A stretch of 64,000 nt of DNA from Verticillium longisporum (taxonomy: Eukaryota > Ascomycota > Sordariomycetes > Glomerellales > Plectosphaerellaceae), in the NCBI GenBank assembly GCA_019188255.1, contig JAETXT010000004.1:1-64000 (forward strand), in the 5' to 3' direction. A model generated the notes under the pieces. That model saw only the letters and a program-made list of their open reading frames with translations, was not told where the DNA came from and ran no database searches. Position 1 is the first letter of the stretch, and the number at the start of each line of letters is the position of its first letter. Made by a program: the position numbers and the translations under genes. Below, piece after piece: positions 1-31,764 of the stretch.

Positions 1-25
1 CTAACCCTAACCCTAACCCTAACCC
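1..25. repeat. Telomere repeats (CCCTAA/TTAGGG type)
   Basis: Four CTAACC units plus one C begin the window, followed at once by unique sequence at base 26. This is the C-rich strand of the TTAGGG repeat used by most filamentous fungi, so base 1 is the physical left end of a chromosome. Only about four repeats remain, probably because the assembly was trimmed. No separate subtelomeric repeat lies between the telomere and the first gene fragment. Confidence 0.97.
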
Positions 26-127
26 GAAAACACCGTCAAGGAACTCAAAGTCATACTCAATCTTTTCGTAGCCGCAGACCTGAAAGCCATTGGCGTTTTC
101 CGTGACTGACGCATTCATGTCTGACAT
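26..127 (-). pseudogene. 2-demethyl-4-deoxygadusol synthase (DDGS) N-terminus, cut off by the telomere
   Basis: Reading the minus strand from the ATG at 127, 34 codons stay open until the telomere repeat begins after the TTC codon at 28-26. Residues 15-34 include the block GYEKIEY (19-25) followed by DGVF (31-34). As I recall it, this block is diagnostic of the N-terminus of the sugar-phosphate cyclase DDGS (MysA of mycosporine clusters), which reads nearly the same there. DDGS converts sedoheptulose 7-phosphate to the cyclitol precursor of mycosporines. The NAD-binding and metal-binding parts, roughly 90 percent of a protein of about 400 residues, are missing, so this copy cannot work. The identification rests on about 20 residues but is supported by the MysC-like ATP-grasp gene next door. 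The promoter side faces the O-methyltransferase gene. Confidence 0.75.
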
Positions 128-977: not shown

Positions 978-1893
978 ATGGCCGGCTTCGATTCCTCCAA
1001 GGCTTATGCCGAGCAAGAGGACGTATATTTCAACGATGGACGCGAGGTCGAGCTCCAGCGCTTCGTGTGCTCTCGCCCGAGTCTTGAGAAATTGAAAGGA
1101 TCGCCTCAAGAGGTTCTGGCTGCCATCGACGAATTTGGCAGGCAGCGTAAGTATCTTATGAACATTGGGTCTGAAAAAGGCGCCATTGTTGCCGACTTGA
1201 TCGCGAGCCTGAAGCCGAAAATAATGGTAAGCGAACCCGATATTGAATCCCTGGTGCAGATCAGTAGTCGTTAACCACGACACTGCAACAGGTCGAACTT
1301 GGAGGCTATGTAGGCTACTCGGCAGTCTTATTTGGCGATGCCTTGCGTAGCGCAGGTGGAGAGCGATTCATTTGCATCGAGAAGAATCCCGAGTTTGCCG
1401 CTGTCGCAAGGTCCATGGTCGAGCTGGCAGGATTGAGCTCCATCGTGGAAATCCATGTTGGCTCGGCAGACGAGACTCTCAAGCGACTGCATTCCAGCGG
1501 TGTTTTGGAATCCATCGATCTCTTATTTCTGGATCACGTTAAGCCAGCCTACCTACCGGATTTGAAGACCTGCGAAAACTTGCAATTGGTCCGGCCTGGC
1601 AGCGTGCTGGCCGCGGACAACGTCATTAAGCCAGGCAACCCGCCATACCTAGAGTATGTGAGGAGCACAGTGGAGGACAAGCAAAAGGCGGCACGCAATA
1701 GGACGATGGAGGACGCTGCCGCACGCGGTGATCCTAGTCTAATATACCAAAGTGAGCTCATCCATAGCTTTGAGCCTACTGGGATACCTGTGAGTCTACG
1801 TTGCCTTTCACGATGAAGACTGGCTCATTTGCGAACTTTTAGGATGGTGTGGAAATCACTAAATGTGTTGGGAAAGACGCGTTGCAAGCGTGA
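978..1893 (+). CDS. Catechol-type O-methyltransferase
   Basis: Three exons (978-1226, 1292-1789, 1843-1893) with GT-AG introns of 65 and 53 bases give 265 residues. The fold signature is that of animal catechol O-methyltransferase: the S-adenosylmethionine loop VELGGYVGYSA at 84-94, the metal and catalytic block FLDHVKPAYLPD at 162-173, and ADN at 191-193. The three expected metal ligands (Asp164, Asp192, Asn193) are all present, so the enzyme looks functional. No signal peptide is seen, so it is probably cytosolic. It sits between the DDGS remnant and a MysC-like ATP-grasp gene. By context it may methylate the cyclitol to 4-deoxygadusol, but it is of COMT type rather than the cyanobacterial MysB type, so that substrate is inferred. 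A catechol substrate is the alternative. Confidence 0.88.
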
Positions 1894-1915
1894 AAGCATG
1901 AAAGCATGAAAGCGG
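1893..1915. repeat. Short tandem repeat, GAAAGCAT-type unit
   Basis: Just after the methyltransferase stop codon an 8-base unit is repeated about three times, the last copy imperfect. It is probably neutral slippage in the 3' UTR. Confidence 0.6.
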
Positions 1916-2132
1916 GACCGATAAGCAACTAAGAAGTCAATCAGTCGGATAAACACCGCGTGTGCCAAAGTGTTGCCAAGATCACAAATGCGCAGACGGT
2001 TCTCCCAAGGTGCAGCGCATGACCGAGAGTTGCGAACGCTGCATGTCTATGACGCGCACTTCCCCTCTCAAGAAAAGAAATTCCAGGCGCTGTGACTGTT
2101 ATTACCTGGGCCAAGTACAAGTGTTCTTTCAG

Positions 2133-3704
2133 ATGGAGCTACTCCCTAACCCTACTCGTCCACCAGTAAACAGTGCATCGTCAATGGCTCTTCATCACAA
2201 ATCAGTGGCACCAATGATCCGGCACGTCATCAAAAACGCATTCCTTCTCTGCTTGAGCCTTACGTTCCTCCCATTCACCAGTCTTGTCGTTCTGGTCTGC
2301 CAGGTGTACACAATCTTGTCAACATGGCTGAACCCAAAACATGGGGCGTCAGGAGTCGTCAAGACCATCCTGGTCACTGGTGTCAACATGAATAAAGGCC
2401 TCTCGACGGCTAGATTATTTCACAGCCAGGGCCATCGAGTCATAGGTGCTGACACGCACCGCCTGTCACCGGCACGGGTTTCCGTGGCTCTTAGCCAGTT
2501 TTATGTCCTTCCCGAGCCGTGCGACACGGAGCTCGAGACTCTCAGCACTCACACTACGGCGTACGTAACCTCGCTATTGCAGATCATCAAGGCGGAGAAG
2601 GTTGATCTCTGGGTATCTGTGTCAGACGTCAACGCCGCCATACAAGATGCACAGGCTCGGCAGCTTATCGAGAACTGTACCAACACGAGGGTTATCCAAT
2701 TGCAAGAGTCGCAAGTCGAAATGCTGCACAACAAGGCATTGTTTATGAACCATGTTCATTCAATCGGTCTCAGGGCTCCGGAAACGAAGACTGTCTTGAG
2801 CGCTGCAGAGCTCATCGAGTTTCTATCAGCTCGAGGCGGTTTGTCACTCAGCATATCCGGCGGTACGCAATATCTGGTCAAACCGGTTGATATCAATGAC
2901 ATTGCCCGCTTCGGCATGGCTTTGGTGCCCCGGGATATCGAGCAAGACACACTACAGGCGATCAGCACGATCCCATTCAAGGATGGAAACCGGGTTCCGT
3001 CTTTCCAAATTCAAGAATACATTCAGGGCAGGGAGTACTGCACACACGCTTTGGTGATTGGAGGCCAAGTTCGTGCCTTCGTTGCTTGTCCTTCTGCAAG
3101 CGTCTTGATGCACTACTCGGCACTATCACCGTCTTCACATCTCAGCCAGAAAATGCTGCACTTCACGAGATCGATCATTGAGAAGGACTCCACGGATTGG
3201 ACAGGGCACTTGAGTTTCGACTTCATCGTCAGGTCGAAAGCCAGCAGCAATTTAGAGGAAGACCAGCATGCGGAGATTTACCCGATAGAGTGCAATCCAA
3301 GGGTCCACACAGCCGTTGTTCTCTTCAACGAAACACCAGGCCTGGTAGAAGATTACCTAAGTGTACTAGAGCCAGGTGTGGCTCACCAGCCAGTGGAACC
3401 TCGGTATCCTAGAACTTATCGAAAGTACTATTGGTTGGGGCAGGACTTCGTCGAGCTGGCTATGTTGCCCACCATTCGAGCGCTGCTCATGCCCAACGGT
3501 GGCGATACCTCAATTCAGCAGTCGTGGTGTAAGTTTTGGCATCATCTTTGCCACTGGAAGGATGCAACCTTCGAGGTTAGTGACCCGTGGCCATTTTGGT
3601 GGCTCTATCACATCTACTGGCCTGTCCAGTTTGCCTGGTCTTTGAGGACAACACGTTGGCAAATGATCAATGTGAGCACAGGCAAAGTATTCAAGGCGGC
3701 ATAA
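2133..3704 (+). CDS. ATP-grasp enzyme, MysC-like (mycosporine-glycine synthase family)
   Basis: Single-exon gene of 523 residues from the ATG at 2133. The frame is open back to 1962, but the upstream part is Cys/Arg-rich and unlike the family; ATG 2184 is also possible. A hydrophobic segment lies near residues 33-58. It is followed by an N-terminal nucleotide-fold motif TILVTGVNMNKGLSTARLFH, then GHRVIGAD, then the ATP-grasp core. This order (membrane segment, G-x-M-x-K-x-L-x-x-AR, GHRVI) matches MysC enzymes, which use ATP to join 4-deoxygadusol to glycine or another amine. It follows the O-methyltransferase on the same strand and shows no lesion. Another carboxylate-amine ligase role is possible. 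Confidence is high for ATP-grasp and moderate for the MysC role. Confidence 0.85.
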   Translation: MELLPNPTRPPVNSASSMALHHKSVAPMIRHVIKNAFLLCLSLTFLPFTSLVVLVCQVYTILSTWLNPKHGASGVVKTILVTGVNMNKGLSTARLFHSQGHRVIGADTHRLSPARVSVALSQFYVLPEPCDTELETLSTHTTAYVTSLLQIIKAEKVDLWVSVSDVNAAIQDAQARQLIENCTNTRVIQLQESQVEMLHNKALFMNHVHSIGLRAPETKTVLSAAELIEFLSARGGLSLSISGGTQYLVKPVDINDIARFGMALVPRDIEQDTLQAISTIPFKDGNRVPSFQIQEYIQGREYCTHALVIGGQVRAFVACPSASVLMHYSALSPSSHLSQKMLHFTRSIIEKDSTDWTGHLSFDFIVRSKASSNLEEDQHAEIYPIECNPRVHTAVVLFNETPGLVEDYLSVLEPGVAHQPVEPRYPRTYRKYYWLGQDFVELAMLPTIRALLMPNGGDTSIQQSWCKFWHHLCHWKDATFEVSDPWPFWWLYHIYWPVQFAWSLRTTRWQMINVSTGKVFKAA

Positions 3705-5374
3705 CTTCAGGCTTTCATCGAACCCCGTCTGCTCAACCGACATCGACCTCCAGCGCACCAGCGTCCTGCGCTCCGGCGACAGACGGCTTGGGTGGCAAAA
3801 CTTGTGAATGGCCCTGACATATTGTGCAGCCTTTTCGGTAGCAAGGCGGCGGTTGAGATGCCTCTCTCCGCACAGCGGCTGTGGGAATCAAAAACAACGT
3901 TGCGCGTTCCGAGACTGGGGCGCGAACTTGGGGTGTTGTTACCTCAACAAAGTCTTTCATGAATCCGATTCCCCGTTCATGGACATTGGGTTCAGCGCAC
4001 TTGACTGGGCCTGGGCCTGGAAAGGGGTCCGCTGGTGGGTAGTAAGCCGTTATTTAGGCCTCAATGACAATGTCAAGCTTGCTTGATAATGAGACGGTTT
4101 CCCAATGTGCTACGTGATGCGGCCTGGAAGATGCCGATAATTTGCATTTGGCATGTCACGAGTCACGACAGCACATGGAAACCACAATGTCCATCAACTG
4201 TCCCGGCCCCATGGCAACGACCCACTTGTCAAGCAGCAAAAGGCACGAAAGAGATCTCACCCGACCTACTAAGAGTCAGCTATGTGCAGGCTGCATTACC
4301 AGGTCGTTGCCGGCCGTGCCGAGCCAGCACATGTTGTGGCCGATCAAGTGCCCGCACGCCAAGGCCACACGCCAAGGGTGGAATCGCCATCGGCAGGATT
4401 CAACGCGTGCGAGGTGGCCCGAAAGGGCGCCCATCGCCGCCACATGCAGCCTGTTCGCTGATTAAAGGCGCGGACCGAGCTTGGCGGAGCCGAGCAGATG
4501 GGTGTCGGCGCGGACGCAGGCGAGGGCCAGGATCAAAGACGTACTATCTTCCAAAAAGAGCGATTTGGCATTACAATCAAAGGGCTTGATTGTAAGTATT
4601 CGAGAGACAGGAGCAGTAGTCCGTTGACCTTCAATGCCTGTTGATGCGATCCGCAATGGATGAGCAGAGGTAGCCGACTGCAGACGATTAGACTGCAAGT
4701 GCAATTGGTGGTCCACACTACGAACGGGACAGCCCATCGGACGAACGAGTGCCGACAGACAACTGATGACCCGGCGCGAAGCATCATGCCATGCCGCCAA
4801 TCCAGGCCTGGCAATCTCGCCGTGCTGCAATAAGGTTAATTGAGTCTTGGCGTATGAGATGAAGGTCGTCTCGGGTGGATTGCTCGCCTGCAACTGTGAT
4901 GGGCCACCGATTGAAACAGGCAACGTGCCGGGGCTGTGCCACAGGTCTGCGGTGGGCCCATGCCAATCACGATTGGGAGTCAAACAAAAGCTTATGAAGG
5001 CCAACGCCTACTGGCCAGTAGTGCCAAGCCTGTTGGGTCTTGACTCGGGAGGCTCTGACGCGACGGCCGAGTATGGTGTCTACCAAACCCTAAGCGGCTA
5101 CCATATCCGGTTTTTCGAAGGAATTGGACCCGAAGCTGGGGCAAAAGTGATTCGTGGGACACCCCCGCGGGGGGACAATGCGGGGAGAAGGAGATGGCTG
5201 AAGGGGAGGCTGATTCGTGGACCCCATGGGGGCCATGTGGGAGGGGACGCCCTGGGGATCTGCTCCACATGGCGAACATGTTTATCTTGAAGGCCTTTCC
5301 CTCCTGTCAGACTGACTCTGTTCCTCACCCCTTCACCCCAACTCGCGTCGCCAACCAATACACAAACCGACAAC
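3705..5374. other. Intergenic region upstream of sugar transporter
   Basis: About 1.7 kb with only short, overlapping frames on both strands and no protein family I recognise. Its right end is the transporter promoter and carries CreA-like sites (separate entry). Confidence 0.5.
5163..5185. promoter_or_regulatory. Cluster of CreA/Cre1-like hexamers
   Basis: Three matches to the carbon-catabolite repressor consensus SYGGRG lie within 23 bases: CCCCGC (5163-5168, reverse orientation), GCGGGG (5167-5172) and GCGGGG (5180-5185). They are about 190-210 bases before the transporter ATG. Closely paired sites are typical of functional CreA targets, and glucose repression would suit a sugar permease. 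This is prediction only. Confidence 0.45.
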
Positions 5375-7094
5375 ATGTCTGAGAAGGAGCAACCCGGACT
5401 CGCCCACGCCGAGAATGGCGTGTACAACCCCGACCTGGCTCTCATCGAGGCCGCACACAAGACGAGTGACGAAGAAGCCAACCTGTCTCGCAAGGAGCTC
5501 TTCTCCCGTTACGCGCCGGCCGTCATCTACAGTGGTCTGCTGAGTTTGGCTTTGGTCATGGAGGGTATGGATGTCGGCCTTATCAACAACTTCTTCGCCC
5601 ATCCTGCCTATCTGAAGAGGTTCGGCTGGCCTAACGAGGCTGGTGAGAACCATATCTCTTCGACCTGGCAGGCGGCTATCGGCAACGGTAACAATGCCGG
5701 CACCATCGTCGGCCTTCTCATCAACGGTTGGCTCCAGTCTCGCTTCGGTTCGCGCAAGGTTTACATGGGAGCCATGGTCGCCATGGGCGCCACGATCTTC
5801 TGCCTGTTCTTCGCTACGAACGTTGAGATGCTCCTCGCCGGTAACATTCTCTGCGGCATTCCCTGGGGTATCTTCCAGACTCTGACGACTGCCTACGCTG
5901 CCGAGATTTGCCCCGCCGCCATCCGTGGATACCTCACTGCCTGGGTGTCCATGTGCTGGGGTGCCGGATCTTTCCTAGCTGCGGGTGTGCTTCGTGGTTC
6001 TCTCGACCTGCCAGGAGACGCTGGGTGGCGTGTGCCATATGGCCTACAGTGGGTCTGGGTCGTGCCCCTATTCTTCGTCGGCCTCTTTGCCCCTGAGAGC
6101 CCCTGGTACTTGATTCGTCGTGGCCGTGTCGATGAGGCTGAGAAGTCGCTTCGCCGCCTCGCTCGAAAGGGACACTACACCGACCAAACTATGGCCGAGC
6201 TCATCGCGTTCATGAAGCACACAAACGAGATGGAGAAGATCGAAGCCGAGGGCGCCAGCTATAGGGACTGCTTCCACGGCACTAACCTACGCCGTACCCT
6301 CATTACCTGCATGACTTGGGTTGTCCAGATTCTCAACGGTCAGGCCCTTACCGCTTACGCCGCCGTCTTCCTCCGGGCTGGTGGTATGCCTACTCACCAG
6401 TCTTTCAACTTCAGCATGGGAATTCAGTCGACCAATATCGTCGGCACTATTATTGCCATTGTTCTGATGGGTCGTATTGGACGTCGTACCTTCTATCTCT
6501 ACGGTTCCTCGTTCATCGGCCTTTGCATGCTGATTATGGGAATCTTGGGCTTCATCAAGACTAACAACATTCCTATTGCTGTTGCTGTCATCCTGATCTT
6601 CGTTCAGCTGACCTTCAAGCTGTCGCTGGGTCCCGCCTGTTACGTCATTGTTGGAGAGATGTGCTCCAGCCGTGTCCGCGCTCAGACTCTTGTCCTCGGC
6701 CGCGCCGTCTACGTTACGGGTGTCATCTGTGTCCAGCAACTCAACCCCCGCATGCTTAACAAGGGAGGCGATGCTTGGAACTGGGGAGCCAGGGCTGGTC
6801 TCCTCTACTTTGGTCTCTGCTTCATTTGGGCTGTCTGGATCTTCTTCTGCCTGCCCGAGACGAAGAACCGCAGTTTTGCCGACATCGACTACCTCTTCCA
6901 GAAGAAGGTGTCTGCCCGAAAGTTCGCCACTACTCCCATCGACAGTAAGTTCAACATTCATCCCATGTCTGCTTGTAACCCTGCTAACGTTCTTTTTCCT
7001 AGTCTACGACCTTGCTGGTATCGGCCAGACCAACCACAAGCTGGAGGAGGACGACGCTGACGTTGTCGAGGTTCGCGAGGATAAGCGTCAGTAG
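5375..7094 (+). CDS. MFS sugar transporter, maltose/alpha-glucoside permease type
   Basis: Two exons (5375-6944, 7003-7094) encode 553 residues. A 50-residue cytosolic N-terminus precedes about 12 membrane spans. Family marks include GRIGRR after the sixth span, a glycine-rich LxxxRFGSRK stretch in the first loop, and PETKNRSFADIDYLF at the end of the last span. These place it in the fungal sugar porter family, closest to maltose permeases of the MAL61/MalP group. It would carry an alpha-glucoside or related sugar with protons across the plasma membrane. The short second exon encodes an acidic tail, DDADVVEVRED. Codon use is strongly biased to C-ending codons, suggesting high expression. CreA-like sites lie upstream. 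The actual sugar cannot be read from sequence. Confidence 0.9.
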
Positions 7095-7805
7095 ATTTCT
7101 ATAAGGAAGGGGGTTAAATGGTGGCGATGCATAGGCCGTGCTCTTGATTGAAAGTGTGGTAGATTAGAGCACTCAATACATCGTTCTATCATCCACATTT
7201 TACGCTGGATTCTATCTACTATATAGTGCAATCGTTTTCAGAGAGATGTGACGCATGGCTCTAATGTAGACGCTTTAGACGCTTAAACGGTTGGTGGGTT
7301 GGATGGATAGGCTGTGTGTGGTGATCAAATTCCAACAATGAATTTGGTTTCGATCCGAATTCACTTCTTTAATTACCCATGGACAGCAAAAGAGTTCGAA
7401 GACTTGCTTGTGATCGTGCATCCCTCTCAATCCGCATTTGTAGCTGATCGGTAGAGATGAGAGGCCGTGCCGGTGATCGTAATCGCATCAGCCCATTGCC
7501 TTTGCAGTCATGTTACCCTTGTGCCAGGCCGCGGTGTCGGCCTCAATCGCCCAAACATCTAAACGGCAGTGCCCGTCCTCTTTGATGGACCTAGTAGTCC
7601 TGCAGGCTTTCCAGCTCAGTGTGTTGGGTGGAACTGTCGAACTTCTGAGAGCTTCGCATTCGCAGGCTCTCTACAGCAAAGGTTTTCTTTTGGATGTCGG
7701 GTTTGATTTCTAAATTTGGTTTCATATAGTCCCTAAATTTTTGGCCCCTCGCTACATACTTATGCAAAGTCTTGAAATATTCTAGCCCAGGTTTCACGCA
7801 TTGTC
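7095..7805. other. Intergenic, convergent gene ends
   Basis: About 710 bases between the transporter stop and the permease pseudogene stop. It is AT-richer than the flanking genes. I see no gene or repeat in it. Confidence 0.5.
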
Positions 7806-9530
7806 CTACTGTGCTAGAGTCCTAACATAAGCAACAGGACCTTCGTACTGATGCGTGCCGCGCACGAGATAATAGGCCAGAGAGAACAAGGCGATGACAC
7901 TGTAAATGAGAATATTCCAATTCATCAAGTCGAGAGTGGGTTTTGGCGTTGGCGGCATAAAAGCCAGGACGAAGATGGCAACGAGAAACACAACTGAGGC
8001 AACGTTGATGGTTAGACCCCATCGACCGAGCCTGAACTTTGAGGGAAGTAGAGGACTATTGGTCCAGCGCCTCCAAATCATGCAGCCGATGGAGCAGATA
8101 TAGCTAGACAGAAGAGAAGTTGTCGCCAAGGATGTAATTGAATTCAGGGCGACGGCAGACCCAATGTTGATGAGCGAGAGAAGACTGGAAATGAGGAAAG
8201 TCGTAAAAATGGCGTTGAGGGGAACATCCCAGCCGGCGGGAACTTTAGCGAACCAAGGGCTCAGGGGTACGGCGTTATCACGCGCAAAAGCAAACAGCTG
8301 GCGCGAGGCAATGGCCACCATGGTGAGATTGGAGAATATGGCCATAGCGACGACAAAGACGGCCATAGCCGTGGCGCTGCTTGCTGACTGTGTCGAGTTG
8401 AGAAAAACCTGCATGAAGGGGTACCCAGTCGGTGTTTCGAAGACCTCAAAAAGGTCGCCAATGCAGAAGCAGTAGGTGATCATCATAAACCATTCTAGCC
8501 CACCGTTGATCACGGTGGTTATGATCATGGATCGGGGCAGCGTCCGCCCGGCGTTGCGCACCTCCTCCGACATGTGAACGGCGGCATCGGCACCAAGCAG
8601 AGGCAAGATACCAGCGGTGATGCCGACGAGAGCAGAGCCACCTAGACTTCCCCAGCCCCCACCGTCGAAGAATTCGGTGAAGACGGCTTTGGGCTCAGCC
8701 CGAGGAGACAGGACCCAGAGCGTTACGAGGATTCCGAAGAAGCCAAAGATACGGATAATGAGCACAAGAGCTTTGATGAGGGGTAGCTTTCTAGCCAGGA
8801 CCGTGTTGAAGAGGACCGAAAATGCGGCGACAGCAATAGTGAGCAGCGTGCCATGCCATGGCTGAGGAACGTAACCGGGGTAGTTCAGGACTATTAGCCC
8901 TTGGATCTGCGTGCCGGAAATGTATGCCGAGGACGCGCAAGACGTCTTCCAGCCAAGGACTCACATCCATCCCATCAAGTAACTGGTGAACTTTTGGTAT
9001 TGAGGCGGCGCGAATTCGGAAACCCAGTGGTATTGCCCGCCAGTTGTCGGAGCCCTAACAGTTATGTTAACAAAAATCTTCAAAGTTGGGTTGGGCGGCA
9101 ACAAACATGGACGCCATTTCAGCCATAGATATATTGACCAACATGAAACCGGCCCAGCAAGTCAAGTACATCCAGATGAGGCCAGCCGTACCTCCATTAA
9201 TGAGACCAATAGTCGAGACACTGTATGCCACGTTAGCTACTTTAGGCCTCAAGACAGCAACAATCTCTCCTCAAAGAGAATTCCCACGATGCCATTAGAA
9301 TCATGGAGAAGCCAAAGATCGATAGGAAGCGAAAGTTTCTCTACGGTACCATCATTAGTAGCTGTCAGGCTCAAATTCTAGTTTCACTGTTCTTACTTTC
9401 ATCTCCTGCTTCTTGCCCATGAGATACATGTCCGCCCGATCATTGGCATTGCCACGCTTCTCGTCGATGCCATCGCCATCAGGTCGGCGGCAGAGCCGTA
9501 CACCAGACGATCTTCCTTATCAGCGGACAT
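7806..9530 (-). pseudogene. GABA/amino-acid permease (APC family), disrupted
   Basis: The remnant reads as a fungal GABA/choline-type amino-acid permease. Its last 385 codons (8960 to 7806) are open and carry typical membrane spans, with the stretches GTQIQGLIVLNYP, PWHGTLLTIAV and VRNAGRTLPRSM. Upstream exons follow in order: 9397-9530, an intron 9341-9396, then LINGGTAGLIWMYL and GGQYHWVSEFAPPQYQKF. Two lesions are visible. A TGA at 8961-8963 interrupts GWM-x-VLGW, where relatives have Cys (TGC). One base is also missing near 9478-9484, which splits the N-terminal acidic region between two frames. The intron near 9260 has no clear donor. The intact gene would import GABA or another amino acid. 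Flanking genes are unrelated. Confidence 0.72.
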
Positions 9531-10424
9531 CGTTGCTTGAATACAGAAGGTAAAAAGAAAACTTCTTCAACGAAGGAACGAAAGGAATATGTAGAGCAGT
9601 AGGAGAAGCCGGGGAAACCACGATGGCAGGGAAGGGGGGGAACGGTCAGAGGTCATGCAGCAGCAGACGGCCGCCCTGGGCTGAAAGATGGTGTATAGAC
9701 CCCCCACGCTCAGTGCACCAGGATCATGGCTCGAAAAAGCATGCCGGCTTGTTGCGATGGTCACAGTTCTGGCCAGAACTGGGCTGCTGCATGGCGTGTT
9801 GGACTCTGGCCAGCGATAGAACCTTTGGTGCTGTGTTGTTGGCGTCCAACACGGCGCCTTGTGGATGGATAGCATCGGTAGTGGAGTCCTCAGAAATCTG
9901 TCTTTGCCCGTTTTGTGAAGCAGCCGAACCATAACAGGGGTCCTGGAACGTCTGCTGCCTGCAGGGGCTGGGCACCCTGGCTGCCAGGTCGACTTCTGGA
10001 TCGGTGCTTACACTTTTGTTACGCAAGATGATTCTACTGTCATTTCAATGTTGCAAAAAAAGTTTGTCATTGGAGAACCAGAGCCCGGCCGCCAAGGGTA
10101 GTGACGGGATACTATGTATACATGGTACATGGCAAGTCCCCCCCTCCCGGCCTCGCAGAACAGCGAGCTACCCTGTCAAGAGATCAAAGTCTAATCGGCG
10201 CGTGTCTCGCTGAAAAGCCTTGAGATTGGTCCGCCAGTAGAATGGAAGTGGCGTCTCATTCAGGAGCTCGTTCTTTGGGCCTCATCCCGAGCGAGAGGAT
10301 CGGGCTTCTCAGTACATGAAGAGACGCATGGCCCAACTCGGCGGACAGGTCTCTTGCATTGACGTACTCCAGAAGTCCGAAAAATTGGAATTCTTTTTCT
10401 GTATAGTTTTGACGGTTGTAGGCC
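9531..10424. other. Intergenic
   Basis: About 890 bases with no recognisable gene, repeat or RNA. Short frames occur on both strands without family resemblance. Confidence 0.45.
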
Positions 10425-11680
10425 ATGGATGGTCCTCGTTTTTCTCCAGTTGCATTTGACGACCATGCGGGCCAACTATGGATTATTTCCATTTTGGCCT
10501 TGATATACAGCGCGCTTGTGGTGGCTACCAGGGCTTTCATCAAATTTCGCATGTATGGGCTCGATGACCTCTTCATAGCGCTAGCTACAGCATTACACTT
10601 GGGTCAATCAATCGCCGTCTTCGCTGGCCTGAACAATGGACTGAGTAAATTCAACTCCAACACTTCCGAGATCCAATGGACTTTGTCTTCCAAGGTATGA
10701 TCCCCTTTAAAATATTGATAGAGATGCTAATAACTGCCACGGGCTTTCCTAGTTTCTGAGGTTTTATGTGTGCTCGCCCTGAGCTTGGCTAAATGCTCTG
10801 TTCTAGCTCTCGTGCTTCGCATCATCGGGTCAAAGACTGGGAAGAGCAGACCCATCTGTCTTGGCCTCATGGCCATCAGCGCTCTGTGAGGAGCTGCGGC
10901 ATGTGCTACGCTGCTGGTCAAATGCCGCTCTGATACACTGTTGGCGCTTGAGAATGCCTTGTTCTGCCCACACCAGGTAAGAAACTATTTTGTGACTTCG
11001 AATACATGTGCTAATCAATACCTAGAAAGCTCGATGCCTGGCCATCACAACCCTTGATATGCTTACCGAAATTCTCGGCTGGCTTCTTGTGGTGAAGCTC
11101 TGCTGGACCGTCAATATGTCGTTTGAACGGGAGTGTCAGGTGGTGCTGGCCTTCACATTCCGCCTGCCACTTATTGCGCTTTCGGCCTTTCATCTGTCAT
11201 ATTTTGACAAGTATTTGGAGTCGGATGAACCCCAGTTCGCCGTGAATAGCAGTCTCCTATTCCAACAGACCATGATCCTATGGTCTCTTGACTCGGCAAC
11301 GGTCCCCAACCTGAAAAATTTCATGAAATCTTTCTGCATTGGGATGGGCCTTCCGGCCGGTGGCTTTTGACATTAGCGGCTACGGATCTAGCAACCTGTA
11401 TGCCATGCGGTCATTGAAGAACAAATCTCAAGCCACGTCATCAGCCGTCGGGAGCGTCACCGCCACATCGTCAGGATTGATAAGAGACGACGTGGACACA
11501 GAGCACCGCGTCCGACCTCAGGCTTGGAGGCCCGACCAACTTGCTCACCGAACTACGATCATTAACCACACTGATGGTAGGCCCGACGAGGAGGAACAAA
11601 GCTCGAGGAATGGCAGTCAAGAGTTGATTATCAACAAGGAAGTGGTCTGGAGGGTCGAATATGATACTCAACGTGCATAG
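10425..11680 (+). pseudogene. SAT4/rhodopsin-like integral membrane protein, disrupted
   Basis: The fragments read as a fungal SAT4-type 7TM protein. Exon 1 (10425-10694) has WIISILALIYSALVVATRAF and FRMYGLDDLFI. Exon 2 (to 10976) has LAKCSVLALVLRIIGS. Exon 3 (from 11026) has LDMLTEILGWLLVV, QVVLAFTFRLPLIALSAFH and NLKNFMKSF. Introns lie at 10695-10752 (or to 10760) and 10977-11025. The Trp codon of ALWG has become TGA at 10887-10889. An extra T in the TTTT run at 11365-11368 throws the conserved FDISGYGSSN tail out of frame. If the usual TAG acceptor of intron 1 is used, exon 2 is also out of frame; a GAG acceptor at 10760 would restore it. Function of the family is unclear. Confidence 0.78.
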
Positions 11681-12227
11681 CAAGCAGCAGCAAGTAGCCT
11701 GCAGTGGGGTTTGTATGCGCATCATAACCGAAATTAACAGGAATCTCAGCCGATCTTCGTTTCCTACAGTATTCTGGCTCGTGATGAAGCGCCTAAATGA
11801 TTTGCCCCAGAGATAAAAGCTTAACATCGTTCGTCGTGCGCACATACTGTGGATATGTCGATTGCCAATTCAGGGACTATGTCCGCGGTTGCAGCCGAAT
11901 TTTTGGGCGGCTCACAGGGGTTTCCGCCCCGAACCAACCGGAACGCCGGATCAAATCATGAAGCCCCTTGGGCCCCCGGCGACAAGCTGATTGCTGGTGG
12001 TTCTGGTCATCGAACATGCTTGTTGACGGGACGGAGCGGATCGTCGCCAGAGGCGCTTGGCGCCCGCCTCGTCAGTGTTACCTGATGGTCTGGCGTGCCA
12101 AGCCGTCTCATATTCCCCTGAGCCTCCCAAGAATCAAAGCAAGCTGCTACGACGTTGTGGACAGCAGCATTTTCGCGACCTTCCCTCCCTTCCACGCATG
12201 ACACGCAAAGTCTGGTCCTGCAACAAC
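11681..12227. other. Intergenic, promoter side of GNAT gene
   Basis: About 550 bases. Nothing recognised beyond the presumed promoter and leader of the downstream acetyltransferase. Confidence 0.4.
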
Positions 12228-12983
12228 ATGTGCGAGATTGCTTTGCGCGATGCGCGCTACACTGAGCTGGCGGAGATCGCCCATGTTATGGCTACAGCAT
12301 TTTGGGAAGACAATCTGTTCGGCCAGCTCATCCATCCCCATCGCGACGAACACCCAGATGATGTAGACCTTTACTGGTTGAGGCGAGCACGCGTGAACTT
12401 CTGGGACTTTCGCTGGAAATGGCTGGTTGCAACGACTAAAGACGTCAACGGAAACGAAGTCATTGCCGGCATCGCACAGTGGGCCAGACTTGGAGATGGC
12501 GGCCAGAAGATGGATTGCTGGTACTTGGATCCCCGTACGTATATAAATATTTTTCTCGGAATTTTACAATGCTGATATTCCGTTCTAGGCAATTCGCTTA
12601 AACCCTTGTCATCTCTTGCGATGAAGGCTCATGCTTGGTTATGGCCGAGCCGTGCCGTCGATGCCAAGGAAGAAGATATCATCGAGCGGGCGTACCCTTT
12701 TTTTGATGATATTTGGACAGGCAAGCGCGCCGAGTCGTGGTATCTTGAAGCACTGGCGGTAAGGCCAGACTTTCAAGGCCAAGGTGTCGGCTACAAGCTC
12801 GTGCAATGGGGTATTCAACGAGCTCGGGAAGAAGGCATCTGCGCGTCAGTTGTGAGCGCCAAGGGGAAAGACGGGTTCTACACCAAGTGTGGCTTCGATG
12901 AACAATACGGCTCAGCCCGACAGGGCGAAGGAAATCCTTTGGCTGAAGTAGAGGGCGCAAATATGTTCTGGAAGTGGCCATGA
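12228..12983 (+). CDS. GNAT family N-acetyltransferase
   Basis: Two exons (12228-12534, 12589-12983) joined across a 54-base GT-AG intron give 233 residues. The start is taken at MCEIALRDARYTEL; an in-frame ATG at 12198 would add ten residues. The protein has the GNAT layout: an N-terminal strand with ALRDARYTELAEIA, then a long insert (WDFRWKWLVA), and the acetyl-CoA loop in EALAVRPDFQGQGVGYKLVQ, where QGQGVG is the Q/RxxGxG/A motif. The following YTKCGFDEQYG is the usual C-terminal segment. It transfers an acetyl group from acetyl-CoA to an amine that cannot be predicted. The frame is undamaged, unlike the two genes to its left. Confidence 0.85.
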
Positions 12984-13914
12984 GTCCAAGTCAAACTTGC
13001 CTATCTGTTGAAGTACAATACGTTCTTGTGGAACTTTCAGGTTGCTTTCAGCGCATTGGAGTCCTTTCCGAAGTTCTTTCTGGCTTGTATGAAAGCACAG
13101 CCTATCATTGACGATTGTCTGTATCAAAACCAATCTTGTCGGACGGGGGTCAGATCGCAGGCTTGAACGCTGCTAGGGCAAAGACAAACCAAGCAATCGC
13201 ACGATGGTGGAGCTGGCAATTGGAAGCCTGGTCGTCATGTCCGAAGCAACAAATTGGCTTTTTCTGAGTGAGAGATAGTCGGAATTACAACAGTCGAGAA
13301 TCATGTCGCCTACATGCGTCACTCGGCCTTTGCTGGTCCCATTGGAGTGTCCTCGATGCAATCAGGGGGGCACGACACTGATCGTGTTGCACGCGGGCTC
13401 TTTCTCCGAGCATGACAGTACCATTCTTTGCTGCTTGCTGTGCAGATCTTTTAAGGCTTGGAGAGCCATGGACCCTCCAAACGCCAGCCGCCGCGTTCTT
13501 TGCTGCAATTACGGTATACAGAATCGGCAACAACTTCCTTCGGCAACAATGGGCCAGAAAGTCTTGTTGAGGCCGCTCTTAGTAGTATGACCCCAAAATT
13601 CAAGCTGTATTCAGTAAGAGGTTTTGGGGCAGATCTACTTTCTCTCCAAAGGTTCCCTTTAACATAGGGTAATAAACGTTGACCCAAGCGATGATAGTCT
13701 AACAAACCTTGTTGATCAACCTAAGGTCGTCCGCTTGTGGATGGAAATTTTAATTTGAGTGTGAACAGCACGAGCTTTGGATTACGCCGAAATAGCGTTA
13801 TCAATTAGATGTCTAATTTGGGCCTGTGTATCTTGCATCCCACCTCATCAGCCCTGATGAAGTGGTTTGCGAAGTTTCTCCATTACAATAGGCTTACTTT
13901 TCTCTGCCCAAGGC
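12984..13914. other. Intergenic
   Basis: About 930 bases between convergent genes, with overlapping short frames only. No gene recognised. Confidence 0.45.
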
Positions 13915-15328
13915 TCATGTCAGCTTGGTCCCGGAGGCAGCTAGCCTCACGTAGAAGAGCTTGGTCTGTCCAGTAACGATCATGCGACCCTCGCCAGCGA
14001 ACTGAAAGTTGGCGGCAGTGGTACCTGTGTAGATCTTGCCAATGAGCTTGCCAGAGGGGTTGAAAACGTGGACACCATCGCCGCAGCCAGCGTAGACATT
14101 TCCGTTGGAGTCAGTGTGAACGCCTTCAACTACATCAGCTTGTGCCTTTGGTCAAATGACAAAATACATACCATCCGGAATGAAAGAGGCGGTGTAAGCA
14201 AAGGTCTTGCGGTTTTGCCAGGTACCATCACTGTTGACGTCAAAGGAGTAGCTAAGGTCGTCAGATATGCGGCCAGGTCTTTTTAAGGGGTGGGCGACTC
14301 ACACAGAGGCAGGAGACGAAAGATTACGGCCGTAGAAGCCAAGAGCGATGCCTGTGTCGGTCACGTAGGCACGCTTACCACCCGGGCCGAAGGTGATGCC
14401 GTTTGGCAAGGTGAAGTCATCAGCAACGACGGCCACTGCACCGGTATCAAAGTTGTAGCGGTAGACCTGATTCCTCAGACCGGGAACAGGGCGGAAGTCC
14501 TGAAGGTAGCCGTAGAGGGTGTCGGTAAAGTACAGCTCACCGTTGCGGGGGTTGATGGCAACATCGTTGAGCGAGTTGAACTGACGACCGAAGTAGTTAT
14601 TCACCAGGACTATGGGTTGTTAGACATCAGGTAACAGAAAGAAGATATGTCAGGTAACCCACCAGTGGTATTGTATGGAGCCACAGGATTCATCAGATAT
14701 AGCGCAGACGCAACGTTGGCACCTTGCCCTTCGCCGGCAAAGATTATTTGACCCTTGTAGTTGGTCCCTCCATTTGGGTTAATGACCTGAGGGTTGGATG
14801 GGACGACCGTAACCTTGACCTCGTCGGTCGTGTTGGCAGACAGGCGTACAGCCTCAGCATCAGCCAGCGAGATCTTCTGAATGATGGATGACTTATTCAG
14901 GCCGGTGCCAGCGGCCGGGGCCCCAGCGTTTTGGACGAAAAAGACCTCGTCCGTCGGAGGATACCACACGACAGCTTCGTGAAAGATGGGATCTGACTGA
15001 GACGTGGCGATGAGGGTCAAGGACGGGGCGTCGCCAATAACATCGTAAAATTCCTCGTCATATACGTGAAACGGTTTGGCAGTAAGCGACTCCTGGGTCA
15101 CACCAGGCCAGAGGAACACCTGCGGCGAAAGGTAAGCGGTGCACTCGGTCCACTTGGGAAATGGAAAGAACCTACCGTCGAGTCGTTGGCTTGCGACGGA
15201 GGGGGGACCGAGGGCAGGACATTGAATGTCTTCTGGTCAATGATTTGAGCCGTGGACGGGGGCTTGGCAGCCAGCGCGCCCGTATGGGCGAAGAGGCCGG
15301 CGGCGAGCACGGATACAACAGAAGGCAT
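13915..15328 (-). CDS. Secreted SMP-30/gluconolactonase-like lactonohydrolase
   Basis: Five exons (15176-15328, 14663-15119, 14303-14609, 14172-14251, 13915-14129) with introns of 51-55 bases (the last 42) give 403 residues. A signal peptide is evident (MPSVVSVLAAGLFAHTGALA). The body is a six-bladed propeller of the SMP-30/gluconolactonase/LRE family: FHEAVVWYPPTDEVFFVQN, FNSLNDVAINPRNGELYFTD, ANFQFAGEGRM and PNGITFGPGGKRAYVTDTG hold the expected metal-site Glu, Asn and Asp positions. Family members open the lactone ring of sugar or aromatic lactones. Several NxT/S sites suit secretion. It is intact. The substrate is unknown. Confidence 0.9.
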
Positions 15329-18056
15329 CGTGGGCAAGATGATCGTCGTGAAATTGGCTTGCCGTGTAAGACCTGCAGGTAGATGGGTTACATTTAAATA
15401 CGTTAGCCACAAGGTGTGCCTAGCATTCTTCTAGCTCACTTCGGTCTGGTGGAGTGACATCAGTGTAGCTTCGCCTGCACCAAGACATCACATTGAGGAC
15501 TCGGCAGGAAACAACCAGGCTACGACTCATGGGGCGGCGGGCAATTGGGTTCAGGGCCGACAGGGCTATCCCGTGCTAGGCTGACCCGCTATTGAGCGCA
15601 GGTGCCTATAACCGGTCGCCGGAGAGCTCGCTCAGCAGCATTGGCATGGGCGCAGCGCGGGGGAGCCAGGGTTGAACAGGCAAAGATCCGTGGGTCTGTT
15701 AGCTGGCTAATCGAGCTCGCCACGCATCCCAGCAGTTTGGCCGGCTCAGGGTTCGGGATGACGAGGATCGACTGATGGCTGTGGGGAGGGGCATCATACG
15801 AGCAGCAAAATTATAACTACTGTCGCAGAGTTTGGGCTTCAACTCAATGCGATGGGGCTGCCGCTGGGGTTGATGGAGCAGCTAGACTGCCTGAAAGGAA
15901 TGCAGTGCTGCTACATGAGAGCGATCAAGCTGCATTGTGGGTGCTCAAAGTTACATATACGTGGCCCGCGCATGGTTGCTCGATGAACGTGATCACGACA
16001 CCCACGTGAAGATGATGGGTGCATGTCGCGTGGTAGAAAAACAAGCCCACTCGCATTGCGCCATCAATCCAGGGCTCACGCATGCAGCCCCAAGGTAAAC
16101 GTGGTGCAGTAGCCGATAGAATAGCCGAAAGAATAGTGAACGGGCTATCCTGGACTGCGGTGGGGGAGGCAATAGCCTCCCACAACCATGTTCGTCTGAT
16201 GTGAGGAAGGTATGTCATTTTTAAGATCAGGTCGAACTTAGCTGCGTAATAAGCCACTGCCAAGCCCATCATTGTTGCACTCTGAAGGCCGAAGCTGCTT
16301 CAATAAGTCAAAGGTAACTATCACATTTCCGTGATAACCCGAAACTGACAGCGTACCTCGATCGCAAGGGAGGTCGCATAGACACTGCCTCGGGTTGATT
16401 TAAGTACCTCTATCACTATGCTCCTAAGCGAGACACAGTCCCCTCCCCCCCTCCCCCCTGTGCCCAAAGTCTAGCAGGACGAGTTGGCAAGAATAAATAC
16501 CATTTGACGGCAGATTCCGACCGCAAGAGGGAGACGCCCAGCTCTGCGGGGGGTCAGACAAGCAACGTGGATTGGAAGCGAGCAAAGTGGTTGCACTTAT
16601 TTGGAACAGCTATCAAAAGGCAAGGCACAATCGAGTTGAGGGAGAAGCCAGCTCAGCACACCTGATCACTGATCATAATCATCATGGGAAGGCTTCGAGG
16701 TGCACTTCCTCGCTTGCGGGTTGTCTAACGGCTCGTCACACTCTTCACGTCAGCCACGGTCGTTCGTACGGAGCAAGAGAGTCGACACAGAACAAAGCCT
16801 GACAGGTTCTCCATGAGCCGACAAGAGCGGGCCGACAAGAGCGGGAATTGGGCGATCCCTATCGAGTCCAGTTGTCGGACTTAGGCTGCGCCTCCCGGAC
16901 GGCATGGATGATGCGAGCTGTGGTGTGCTCATCTGCCAAGCTCAAGTTGCCAGGTTCTGGGGTCTGTGAAAAGGTAGGCACGTCGTTATGAACCCGAAGC
17001 CAGCCTACTTGTGGGGAAGTAGCTTCCGTTTATGTGTCTCCTGAGACATCAGGGTTGCGTCGGGCCGAGTGGAAGCGACTTGCCTGCTACATGTATGTTA
17101 GCGATTTGGTCCTGAGGATGAGGAGGAGGTTGCAGAATTGGTTGATATTTCAGAACGCACTAGCAGGGTGGCAGGGTCAAGTCCACCTCAGATCGCTCCA
17201 TACAGCCGAAGGACTCTGGGGGCGGGTAAGGTTAAAAGGGGGGCCGGCTGGCTAGCTAAAACTCAAAGACATTAGTTACCGGCACATGTGGACACATCTA
17301 CCGGCCGGCTGGCTAGGCGTCTTGCACACCGGACAATTATGGCGGCGAGGGCATCGCACGCCGTGACAGGAAGCGGAGTTAGTAATCATGAGTATGGTGA
17401 CATCTGCAGCGAAAGAGGAGCCTTGTTTCTCCCACATGTCAAATTACTCGCACCTTTTTACACGTAGGACGGCAACATTATGAGTCAAAATGTCGGCACG
17501 CATGCTGCACAGGAACCCGACGGGAACTGTTTTTGGTCGATCGAAATTGGTGCAATGACTCGATCCACTTCGATCTCGGGTAACCTCTGTTGGTTGAAAT
17601 GTCAGGCAACGTTTTCCCATTTGGCACTGATCCGGTCGTTAGGGCGAGTCCGGCAATTGACGAAGTAAACTTAAAAGACGGGCACCAGATGGGCGCACGA
17701 GCGGGGAACTGGGGGGTGCCGCATCTTTTGAGTGGCGCATCGATGCACAACCAGATGGAACGCAGAACGATGTTCCCTTGTGAGAAAAGTCTCTTCGACA
17801 TAGTGTGTCAGTAGAATTATGTGGGCGGGCGCATTGGGTTGGCGGTGGAAGATATATCAGCTACGAATTCTCTAGTGCGAAGATCAGAGACCCCCTTTTC
17901 AAGTCAAATTGATGGAACACCCGTTGATTTAGAAGACTCGGACACTCGGTATCTTCTGCCGCTCATTCCTCCTTTCTTTGTTGTTCGACCATTTCCTCCT
18001 TTTTGACTGGTGCTGTTGCTTGGCAAGCTACTGATACTCCAGAGACATCAGCCAGC
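15329..18056. other. Long intergenic region
   Basis: About 2.7 kb with no credible gene on either strand. It includes a C-rich pyrimidine run near 16436-16459. The left end serves as promoter of the lactonohydrolase and the right end of the 7TM gene. An unrecognised small gene or non-coding RNA cannot be excluded. Confidence 0.45.
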
Positions 18057-19169
18057 ATGGTAAACATCGACACCCAGAGCGGCACCGTCGCTATTATTAT
18101 TGCGGTATTCATTAGCATCGCGCTGTACAATGTTCTGGAGCTCAATTTCATCATCCTCGCTACATTCAATAAACGCAGCGGTCTCTACTTTTGGAGCTTC
18201 GTCGTAGCAACATGGGGCATCGCATTCAACGCAGTTGGCTACCTCCTAAGGCACTTTGGCAAGAACTTACAGCCCAATGTGTACGCGACACTGATCCTTA
18301 TCGGCTGGTGCACCATGATTACCGGTCAGTCGGTTGTGCTATACTCACGTCTGCACATTGTCATGCTTAACCAGACTCGACTGCGTCTTGTGCTGATCAT
18401 GATCATCACGAATGCTGTCTGGTTGCATTTACCCATCATTGTGCTCGTCTATGGCTCCAACTCGGCCAACCCTGAACCCTTCGTTCATCCATACTCAGTA
18501 TACGAAAAGATCCAGCTCAGTGTCTTCTTTCTACAAGAAATCATCATCTCGTCACTGTACATTTGGGAAACCACGAAACGTCTAAAGCTAGAGAAGAGCA
18601 TCGGCAACATGGGAACGCGAAAGGTCATGAACCATCTAATTCACGTCAACCTTCTTGTGGTTTTTCTCGACGTCTCTATTCTCGCCCTCGAGTTTGCGAA
18701 TCTTTTCGATATCCAAACAGCCTGGAAGCCGCTTGTCTACAGCGCCAAGCTCAAGCTCGAGTTCAGTATCCTCAATCGCCTCGTCCAGCTTACACGAAAT
18801 TCGAGAAACGGGAGCTCCTATACACGCAGTCGGAATGCGACAAACGGTGGTGTTGCCCTTGAAACGTTTAATGGCGAGAGAAATAAGCAGCTGGGCGATG
18901 AAAGAGATACAGCGGCTGCATACGAAGTTCATGTTGGACGGGGCAAGAACGGGGAGCCCAGCTTTGGACAAGACTCCAACGTTATCAAGACGACGGAGAT
19001 TACAGTTCACAGCCACCGGCGGCGGAGAAACAGTGACATAGATATGGAGAGTCTGGATGGCAGGTCCGGAGCGACTGGTGATATAGGATCAGCACAGACG
19101 CGTGACCCAGTTCGAGGCAGTGCCTCGTCCGCATCATCAGAGGTGCAGTTTGCAAAATTTGGAAACTAA
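18057..19169 (+). CDS. Seven-transmembrane protein, DUF7703-like
   Basis: Single-exon gene of 370 residues from the ATG at 18057. About seven hydrophobic spans fill residues 10-245, with family-like stretches YNVLELNFIILATF, GLYFWSFVVATWGI, GQSVVLYSRLH, PYSVYEKIQLSVFF and LQEIIISSLYIWETTKRL. It ends in a roughly 120-residue hydrophilic cytosolic tail rich in Ser, Arg and Asp, including HSHRRRRNSD. This fits a fungus-specific family of uncharacterised integral membrane proteins (DUF7703 as I remember it). A receptor-like role is possible but unproven. A solo LTR lies 39 bases after the stop codon. Confidence 0.82.
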   Translation: MVNIDTQSGTVAIIIAVFISIALYNVLELNFIILATFNKRSGLYFWSFVVATWGIAFNAVGYLLRHFGKNLQPNVYATLILIGWCTMITGQSVVLYSRLHIVMLNQTRLRLVLIMIITNAVWLHLPIIVLVYGSNSANPEPFVHPYSVYEKIQLSVFFLQEIIISSLYIWETTKRLKLEKSIGNMGTRKVMNHLIHVNLLVVFLDVSILALEFANLFDIQTAWKPLVYSAKLKLEFSILNRLVQLTRNSRNGSSYTRSRNATNGGVALETFNGERNKQLGDERDTAAAYEVHVGRGKNGEPSFGQDSNVIKTTEITVHSHRRRRNSDIDMESLDGRSGATGDIGSAQTRDPVRGSASSASSEVQFAKFGN

Positions 19170-19208
19170 CGTCGTGGAAACTAAGAGTAGATGATTAACC
19201 GCACTATC

Positions 19209-19432
19209 TGTCAGGACCCTGCGGAACCGCCCAGGGCCTGCCAAGCCAGGGGGCTGGCCAGGGGCTAAGGGTCACGAGAGAATGTATATATAGGCCGCGG
19301 AGGGCCCCCCAAAGCTGCGGAGGGCCAGAATTCAGATGTATTCCTATCCCATACCTATATTCTAAACTACCTGCGGACCCTGCGGAAGACCCCTTCACTC
19401 TGTTCTAAACAACGCTCTGACACTATCATACC
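19209..19432. mobile_element. Solo LTR, copy 1
   Basis: A 224-base element begins TGTCAG and ends CTGACA, the inverted TG...CA ends of an LTR. It is flanked by a perfect 5-base target duplication, CTATC at 19204-19208 and 19433-19437. A TATATATA box near 19285 would be the LTR promoter. Copy 2 (24220-24423) is nearly identical apart from about 20 extra bases here, a local repeat of a CTGCGGACC-like unit. No internal gag-pol sequence is next to it, so it is a recombined solo LTR. No autonomous parent element is present in the window. Confidence 0.88.
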
Positions 19433-20590
19433 CATTGAAGCTCTTTCGTTTGTACTGGCCCTTGATACACCCCAGCCCGCGTTCTGACACCTGAATCCAT
19501 TGTTGCAACTGGCCTCTTCGAGCTTGAGGAACACCAGCTTCGAAAGCGGTTCTGCTCTGGAGCTCTTCCGGCGGTCTGACCCTGTCCTGAGCAGGCTAAG
19601 GCGGCGAGTCCAGGCCGATGCGGGCACTCCTGTTGATCGCGAAATCTAAGTCCGGCATTGGACGCAGCTTATGTGTGCCTGCATTAAAACGGATGTTAAA
19701 AACTTGCACTGGATGGCTCAGGAAGCCCCTTAATAATCACCAGGGCTCAACCATGTCTGCCGTTCCCAGTCATCGGAAAGGCAATGCGCACAACTTTGTG
19801 AAAGTGGGGCCTGTGCTAATAGCTCCATCAGCCAGGTTCAGGCTGCAACTGTTGGGCTACATTGAGCAAGGCCCATGAGGTGCTGACCCGCCACTATCCC
19901 GCCCTACATGAAACAATCGTAGTATGAAGAACGTTGTTGCTTGGGGTAAGCCCAGGGTGTCCCCAGAATCTCCATCTAGCATGAGTCGAAGTCGAAAAAG
20001 GCATCCGATATGCCGGATCAGCAGTAATACGATGTGGTGGAGAATCCTGTATATGATGTGCCACATGAATATCATCGACATATCTGTGCTTTCCAGTCAT
20101 CAGCCTTTGGTTTGGGTGAACCCTTTGCGCAAACGAGGATCTTCTGGGCCCCAGCGTAACACCCGAGGCAGCATTTTGACTTGACATCTCAAAATGTAGA
20201 GCACAAGTTTACGTCATACTGAGTCCCAACAGCTGTCCGTAACGACTGTCGATGATGAACAGCCGTCGATTGTTTAGGGATTGATTAATACCACTTCATG
20301 GTGTAGGAATGGGAACAGTCAGTGATTTATGCCTGGATCGAAGTCTTCATTTGGTTAGTAGGCCAAGGCTCGAATCATACTCTTCCCCCACAGGGTTCAT
20401 GATTGAATGCAACTGAAGAAACAAAGATTGGAAGCATGAGGCTTTGAAAATTGGGGGATCTTCTGCGTCTATACGTCATAGTTCTACCACTACCTTGCTT
20501 GTATGAATTCTTGGGCTTCGTTTGTTGCAAGGGCATTAACATCGAGCAGCTGGCCCATCCAAAGTAGTGGCCCCACTTCTCCTCAGGCTC
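19433..20590. other. Intergenic after LTR copy 1
   Basis: About 1.2 kb. Bases 19440-19650 show a mostly open, codon-like frame (for example LQLASSSLRNTSFESG) interrupted by stops. It may be a remnant of an unidentified gene. The rest is featureless. Confidence 0.35.
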
Positions 20591-24219: not shown

Positions 24220-24423
24220 TGTCAGGACCCTGCGGAGCCACCCAGGGCCTGCCAAGCCAGGAGGCTGGCCAGGGGCTAAGGGTCACGAGAGAATGTATAT
24301 ATAGGCTGCGGAGGGCCCCCCAAAGCTGCGGAGGGCCATAATTCAGATGTATTCCTATCCCATACCTATATTCTAACTGCCTGTGGAAGACCCCTTCACT
24401 CTGTTCTAAACAACGCTCTGACA
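24220..24423. mobile_element. Solo LTR, copy 2
   Basis: A 204-base element with TGTCAG...CTGACA ends and a perfect 5-base target duplication ATGAC (24215-24219 and 24424-24428). It is nearly identical to copy 1 at 19209-19432 and carries the same TATATATA segment. It is inserted only 13 bases past the stop codon of the minus-strand MFS gene, so that gene's 3' UTR and poly(A) site may now lie inside the LTR. Confidence 0.88.
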
Positions 24424-29119: not shown

Positions 29120-29178
29120 TCACAAGTTGTTCAGCCACACTACTTATATCTATGGCTTTCATGGCGTTGTGTTCCTGC

Positions 29179-31144: not shown

Positions 31145-31764
31145 ATTGTGCTGTTAATGTGCGTTGTGTGCAGGAGGGATTAAGACGGGTTTATTGAAAA
31201 GAGAATATAGACGCGGCTATCCTGGCCTGCCAACAATCGTTGTTCAGGTCCATGTGGTACATATAATTAGTATGAAACCGCGACAGGTTGGGTGGGACAG
31301 TCGCGGTCCGGAGGTCCGATTAGTAGTTAGCCGGCCATGAAATCCTCAGAATCCGGACCGGCGCAGGATCAGGCCCCTAGGCCGGGCACCGGAATGTCAC
31401 CAATGAGAGATCATACATGCGACCACCTGACTGCCTCTGTCAGTGTACTTGTTCAACTGCGGCTATTGTCTCGCGCACCGGATTATTGCGAATCGACCTT
31501 ATTCATGGTGCTGGGTCCGTCCGGCTTCGAGGCAGACGCCTATGATAGGACTAATGAAAATCACCCCAGTAATTTGACAAAAGCATGTCGTTCTCTCGTT
31601 CGGCTTAGGAAGGACCGATGTTCAAAGTCATTCAGTATTCATTACCAGTCTATCCTGCGAAGCACGTCAAGCTGCGCCCAGCAAGGTGTGTAAGTTGGGT
31701 ATCAACATGATGAACAGACGCCGCGCCAGCCCAGTAGCAAGTCAGATGAGTCGTTAGAGTCGTC
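31145..31764. other. Intergenic, promoter of acyl-CoA synthetase and 3' side of helicase
   Basis: About 620 bases without a gene. It contains the CGGWCCGG motifs listed separately. Confidence 0.5.
31304..31361. promoter_or_regulatory. CGGTCCGG and CCGGACCGG motifs
   Basis: CGGTCCGG (31304-31311, one base short of the full motif) and CCGGACCGG (31353-31361) lie 160-217 bases upstream of the acyl-CoA synthetase ATG. The same CGG palindrome stands before the MFS and regulator genes of this segment. Confidence 0.5.

What the first reader, a model, noticed from the sequence alone, without database searches (positions are those of the whole stretch)
1..127. Telomere directly caps a truncated mycosporine-pathway DDGS gene
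The TTAGGG repeat follows codon 34 of a minus-strand frame whose residues 19-34 (GYEKIEY...DGVF) match the N-terminus of 2-demethyl-4-deoxygadusol synthase. No subtelomeric repeat lies between. This looks like a chromosome break inside the gene healed by telomere addition, a snapshot of pathway loss at a chromosome end. The junction offers only a G or GGG of microhomology to the telomere repeat.
Basis: partly seen in the sequence, partly recalled or inferred. Interest (0 to 1): 0.9.

Follow-up and report, generated by a model that had tools for sequence, protein, structure and literature searches.

The report
Telomere capping a beheaded mycosporine gene
At one chromosome end of what looks like a hybrid plant-pathogenic Verticillium fungus, the telomere sits inside the first gene of a sunscreen-compound pathway, a known kind of chromosome-end loss that also appears at a few other ends of the same genome.

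Summary
Bases 1-25 are a perfect telomere array at the terminal base of contig C11. Bases 127-26 (minus strand) are codons 1-34 of a DDGS gene, 34 of 34 residues identical to V. alfalfae, whose best solved relative is 5TPR. The next two genes are the other pathway enzymes, both open: O-methyltransferase (978-1893) and ATP-grasp (2184-3704). No second DDGS or ATP-grasp copy was found in the assembly, which fits V. longisporum PD589 in size. On the homeologous end (C9, 94% identical inside about base 27,500) this segment was not found.

It is not unique. Of 32 contig ends 23 carry arrays, and at 4 of those 23 at least the array abuts a recognisable truncated frame: DDGS, pectinesterase, GH32 enzyme, transposase. 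For the GH32 case, related copies in the same assembly continue past the junction. Similar truncations are documented in Magnaporthe. This array is the shortest of the 23 and no reads could be checked, so an assembly artefact is unlikely but open.

The parts
1..25 (.). Telomere array, 4.2 units of CTAACC (TTAGGG on the minus strand), at the terminal base of contig C11
   Evidence: the shortest of 23 terminal arrays
26..127 (-). Codons 1-34 of a truncated DDGS (mysA-type) gene; codon 34 TTC is followed by GGG TTA of the array
978..1893 (+). O-methyltransferase gene (mysB-type), 265 aa; exons 978-1226, 1292-1789, 1843-1893, splice sites set by me with P0003 as a guide
   Evidence: P0003 matches 84/84 and 120/121 residues of the first two exons; PF01596 in P0003
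2184..3704 (+). ATP-grasp gene (mysC-type), 506 aa, one exon
   Evidence: 424/428 residues identical to P0003 of V. dahliae VDG2; many of the listed homologues are named ATP-grasp domain proteins; no Pfam hit at E<=0.001; no second copy in the assembly

Best explanation
This is a real chromosome end made by terminal truncation. The chromosome once ran further out, through a complete DDGS gene and beyond. It lost its end, by a break or by erosion after telomere failure, just after codon 34 of DDGS. Telomerase then added TTAGGG repeats directly to the exposed 3' end, probably priming on a single G. The O-methyltransferase and ATP-grasp genes just inside survived, so the mycosporine pathway is cut at its first step. 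Shown: the array, the identity of the fragment, the open neighbouring genes, and that no other DDGS was found in the assembly. Inferred: the former longer chromosome, the telomerase step, the one-base seed and the loss of product.
For: 34/34 residues identical to the V. alfalfae DDGS, which in that species is 474 aa. Exact array at the terminal base. Bases 26-1000 unique. PF01761 and full-length protein searches find no rest of the gene, only two places at 27% identity in long frames that fit AROM, plus this fragment. Three other ends show the same anatomy; for one of them (GH32, C15 right end) a 96% identical copy on C6 continues past the junction. In Magnaporthe 19 of 24 new telomeres grew from 1-4 nt seeds (PMC7367193, passage), and nested end truncations are described (PMC8381367, passages).
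Against: The array is only 25 bp, the shortest of 23; 18 of the 23 are 104-117 bp. No reads were available. The junction was not found in the protein collection (44 candidates, none related), although short open-ended frames may simply not be in it. PMC8406199 says contigs under 100 kb were dropped (passage), so the rest of the gene could lie on a dropped contig if the genome is indeed PD589. No sister-strain chromosome with the full gene in this place could be examined.
Confidence: 0.8

Rival explanations
1. Assembly artefact: the contig ends by chance in DDGS, and a short telomere tract was put at its end from mis-joined or rare reads; the chromosome really goes on.
For: Short array (25 bp). 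The assembly is scaffolded and has a telomere array beside a run of N inside C4, and 9 of 32 ends have no array.
Against: An exact 25-base array at the terminal base; no other such array in the window; four other ends also have shortened arrays of 38-78 bp, as expected from trimmed consensus ends; the rest of DDGS is not found in the assembly.
Confidence: 0.1
2. Telomere capture: the broken end was repaired by copying another chromosome's telomere (break-induced replication) instead of by telomerase priming on the break.
For: Capture of internal sequence onto failed ends is reported in Magnaporthe (PMC8381367, passages).
Against: No donor subtelomeric sequence lies between array and gene. Some ends of this genome do share subtelomeric sequence, and none of it is in the first 13 kb of the window at the sensitivity.
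Confidence: 0.08
3. Chance resemblance: the 34-residue frame is not DDGS.
For: Short fragment with no Pfam hit of its own.
Against: 34/34 identity to two Verticillium proteins, start codon included; O-methyltransferase and ATP-grasp next door; 5TPR the only PDB hit.
Confidence: 0.01

Closest known systems
Terminal truncation with de novo telomere formation in Magnaporthe (Pyricularia) oryzae (PMC7367193, PMC8381367; passages)
   Same: A telomere joined directly to formerly internal sequence, with short 1-4 nt seeds; genes near ends lost (AVR-Pita loss is named in PMC8381367).
   Different: Many described cases there concern rDNA or telomeric retrotransposons, and some arose in culture; here a metabolic gene in a probable allodiploid, seen once in an assembly without reads.
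Loss of the telomere-side part of the aflatoxin cluster in Aspergillus flavus (PMC5005231; passages)
   Same: A subtelomeric biosynthetic cluster is lost from its telomeric side with a partial gene (aflJ in group B) left at the edge.
   Different: The passages that I saw do not show a telomere joined to the partial gene; the metabolite is a toxin, not a UV-absorbing compound.
Fungal DDGS / O-methyltransferase / ATP-grasp mycosporine cluster, as named for Xanthophyllomyces dendrorhous (PMC9409151; passage)
   Same: The same three enzyme types together.
   Different: Here DDGS is reduced to 34 codons at a chromosome end.

Membership tests
Fungal DDGS (MysA-type sedoheptulose 7-phosphate cyclase) | N-terminal sequence of the family | tested here: met
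   34/34 residues identical to P0122 and P0123; 5TPR the only PDB hit
Fungal DDGS (MysA-type sedoheptulose 7-phosphate cyclase) | DHQ-synthase-like catalytic domain (PF01761, PF24621) | tested here: not met
   Starts at residue 85 in P0123; the remnant ends at 34 and has no Pfam hit. It is a remnant of a DDGS gene, not a working DDGS
Fungal mycosporine gene cluster | O-methyltransferase and ATP-grasp genes beside DDGS | tested here: met
   978-1893 and 2184-3704
Fungal mycosporine gene cluster | Makes a mycosporine | not testable with these tools
   Needs chemistry
Terminal truncation healed by a new telomere | Canonical repeats joined directly to a formerly internal sequence | tested here: met
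   that the gene was internal here is inferred from its full length in V. alfalfae
Terminal truncation healed by a new telomere | Reads that span the junction and none that run on | not testable with these tools
Terminal truncation healed by a new telomere | A longer chromosome with the full gene in a sister strain | not testable with these tools
   No sister genome is held; full-length protein is known from V. alfalfae only, and members of that protein cluster are not listed
Terminal truncation healed by a new telomere | Short telomere-like seed at the junction | tested here: inconclusive

The most novel reading that the evidence does not exclude
In this young allodiploid the second set of genes relaxes selection at chromosome ends, so telomere healing inside genes has built up genome-wide (at least 4 of 23 capped ends here); and the beheaded cluster, with its O-methyltransferase and ATP-grasp genes still intact, is a natural test of whether fungal mycosporines can still be fed from 3-dehydroquinate without DDGS.
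Probability: 0.2. Interest if true: 0.6.

Novelty: new member of a known kind. Interest (0 to 1): 0.42.

Why it matters
It is a base-resolved example of how a subtelomeric pathway is lost: one cut removes the first enzyme while the next two genes stay open. The same genome offers at least three comparable junctions, one with related longer copies in the same assembly, so healing inside genes can be counted and compared between Verticillium strains and between hybrids and haploids. It also points to a strain in which the two proposed origins of fungal mycosporines (sedoheptulose 7-phosphate or 3-dehydroquinate; PMC9409151, passage) could be told apart chemically.

Tried and rejected
Chance match rejected: 25 exact telomere-phase bases at the terminal base of a contig and 34/34 residues.

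2-epi-5-epi-valiolone synthase, the name the V. alfalfae protein carries, rejected as the activity: P0123 scores 475 bits to 5TPR against 243 to the cyclase 4P53. This rests on similarity only.

A complete DDGS elsewhere in the assembly: not found. A homeologous copy of the window's outer 27.5 kb: not found, with limits. C9 matches window 27,501-33,699 and 57,600-61,000. Window 19,500-27,450 hits C9 only in dispersed repeats (in which 40 of 286 candidates were scored). The last 10.5 kb of C9 give no match to the window at E<=1e-5 (repeated). C9 7,179,543-7,185,000 could not be read, and window 6,001-19,499 was covered only.

Led nowhere: the 20-kb query did not list its own place, so it says nothing on absence. 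The junction protein search gave one unrelated hit at E 7.3. NCBIfam gave only hits below its cut-offs. No PDB relative of the ATP-grasp protein at E<=0.1. PMC12044074, PMC5576322 (passages) and a further passage of PMC8381367 did not bear on the junction. Whether V. dahliae has a complete DDGS could not be told, because the members of a protein cluster are not listed.

Full report
What is there. Bases 1-25 are a perfect telomere array. From base 127 down to 26 the minus strand reads ATG plus 33 codons, and the frame runs on into telomere-coded GLGLGL. The 34 residues are identical to the start of the V. alfalfae VaMs.102 protein P0123 and of V. nonalfalfae P0122. The padded search with the fragment returned 6 proteins from 6 candidates; all 6 are fungal and carry PF01761, and one (Cladobotryum) is named demethyl-4-deoxygadusol synthase by its source. 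The fragment's only PDB hit is 5TPR. P0123 is far closer to 5TPR (475 bits) than to the cyclase 4P53 (243) or to DHQ synthases (114 or less).

The neighbours. Facing away from the fragment lie a three-exon O-methyltransferase (978-1893, 265 aa) and a one-exon ATP-grasp gene (2184-3704, 506 aa), neither with a premature stop. Against P0003 of V. dahliae VDG2, a record in which the two are one protein, the O-methyltransferase matches at 84/84 and 120/121 residues and the ATP-grasp part at 424/428. DDGS, O-methyltransferase and ATP-grasp are the enzymes named for a fungal mycosporine cluster (PMC9409151, passage). So the cut removes the first enzyme and leaves the next two. The Pfam DHQ_synthase domain begins at residue 85 of P0123; the remnant has none of it.

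Is the rest elsewhere? A PF01761 search of the assembly gives two places, on C10 and C14. The full-length protein gives the same two at 27% identity and this fragment. The two frames are 1577 and 1073 aa long; that they are AROM is inferred from length and from the AROM hits. The ATP-grasp protein has no second copy. In bases 1001-6000 only the sugar-transporter part (from about 5400 on) has other DNA matches.

Which genome. Size and number of contigs fit V. longisporum PD589 (72.0 Mb, 16 pseudochromosomes; PMC8406199, passages). This is an inference. The other chromosome-level V. longisporum assemblies that I saw described are 72.2-72.7 Mb in 15 pseudochromosomes or about 73.4 Mb in 34-46 contigs (PMC13248723, whole text). 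The homeologous region is the right end of C9, 94% identical. Homology begins near window base 27,500; the outer part was not found on C9, within the limits given under Tried and rejected. The 99% protein match to V. dahliae suggests that this end comes from the dahliae-like parent (inference).

Other ends as a control. Of 32 contig ends, 23 carry a terminal array of at least 20 bp. The C11 start array is the shortest at 25 bp; 18 of 23 are 104-117 bp and the other four 38-78 bp. At 4 of the 23 the array abuts a recognisable truncated frame: DDGS here; pectinesterase at C4 right (profile positions 122-277 of 298); GH32 at C15 right (positions 141-278 of 307 of the N-terminal domain); DDE transposase at C14 left (DDE_1 positions 3-122 of 177). 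This is a minimum. Only the longest frame in 680 bp of each end, if at least 90 aa, was printed (15 frames), and 14 of those 15 were scanned. A remnant as short as DDGS would be missed by that scan. Frames open to the junction at C5 left, C9 left and C9 right have no Pfam match. For C15, C6 holds two 96% copies. In the one that I could read, similar sequence continues past the junction: C15 reads GGGTC then TTAGGG, C6 reads GGGTC then ATAG, and further GH32-like sequence follows. That C6 copy shifts frame just beyond the junction, so it is not a clean intact gene, and C15 lacks one base relative to it further in. For C4 no second DNA copy was found. C14 bases 68-1116 match C2 1138-2186 at 99.9%, but what C2 carries further out was not examined against the junction.

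The junction. Codon 34 is TTC, then GGG TTA. Verticillium relatives have D next (GAY), so one G is probably native and the following base departs; an intron starting there with GT would also leave one shared G. In Magnaporthe, 19 of 24 new telomeres grew from 1-4 nt seeds (PMC7367193, passage).

How it works, most likely. The end was lost just after codon 34 and telomerase added repeats to it. A single break and gradual erosion after telomere failure cannot be told apart here; the authors of PMC8381367 favour telomere failure for Magnaporthe ends (passages).

Limits. No reads, no sister-strain DNA, a short array, and a scaffolded assembly with at least one telomere array beside a gap inside C4. 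I saw nothing on this junction in the titles and abstract starts listed, and the word stem 'telomer' does not occur in the main text of PMC8406199. That is not a proof that it is unpublished.

Verdict. Its interest lies in the clean cut of a pathway and in being one of several such ends in what is probably a hybrid genome.

Noticed in passing
G000 C4 right end (L063), C15 right end (L074), C14 left end (L052): Telomere arrays directly abut truncated frames of a pectinesterase, a GH32 enzyme and a DDE transposase.
   Followed up: partly
G000 C4:384431-384498 (L055): A 68-bp telomere array inside C4 directly beside a run of N; it looks like a telomere-ended contig joined into a scaffold.
   Followed up: no
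G000 C6:5458-6150 (+) and C6:69177-69869 (-): Two GH32 copies in opposite orientation 64 kb apart, both 96% identical to the C15 end; C6 has no array at its left end. Either a large inverted duplication or a fold-back in the assembly.
   Followed up: no
window 19208-19422 and 24220-24423: A dispersed repeat of about 205-215 bp with some twenty or more listed copies on many contigs at 83-99% identity.
   Followed up: no
window 27501 and C9:7179542: Homeology between the C11 and C9 ends starts abruptly here, 100 bases into the query and just before a frame with a fungal transcription factor domain (27523-28770); the outer 27.5 kb and C9's last 10.5 kb are unlike.
   Followed up: partly
P0122 (V. 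nonalfalfae): The DDGS record is only 286 aa and departs from its relatives near residue 273; a gene-model error or a separate loss.
   Followed up: no
P0003 (V. dahliae VDG2): O-methyltransferase and ATP-grasp are annotated as one protein named GPN-loop GTPase 2-like, which looks like a wrong fusion and a wrong name.
   Followed up: no
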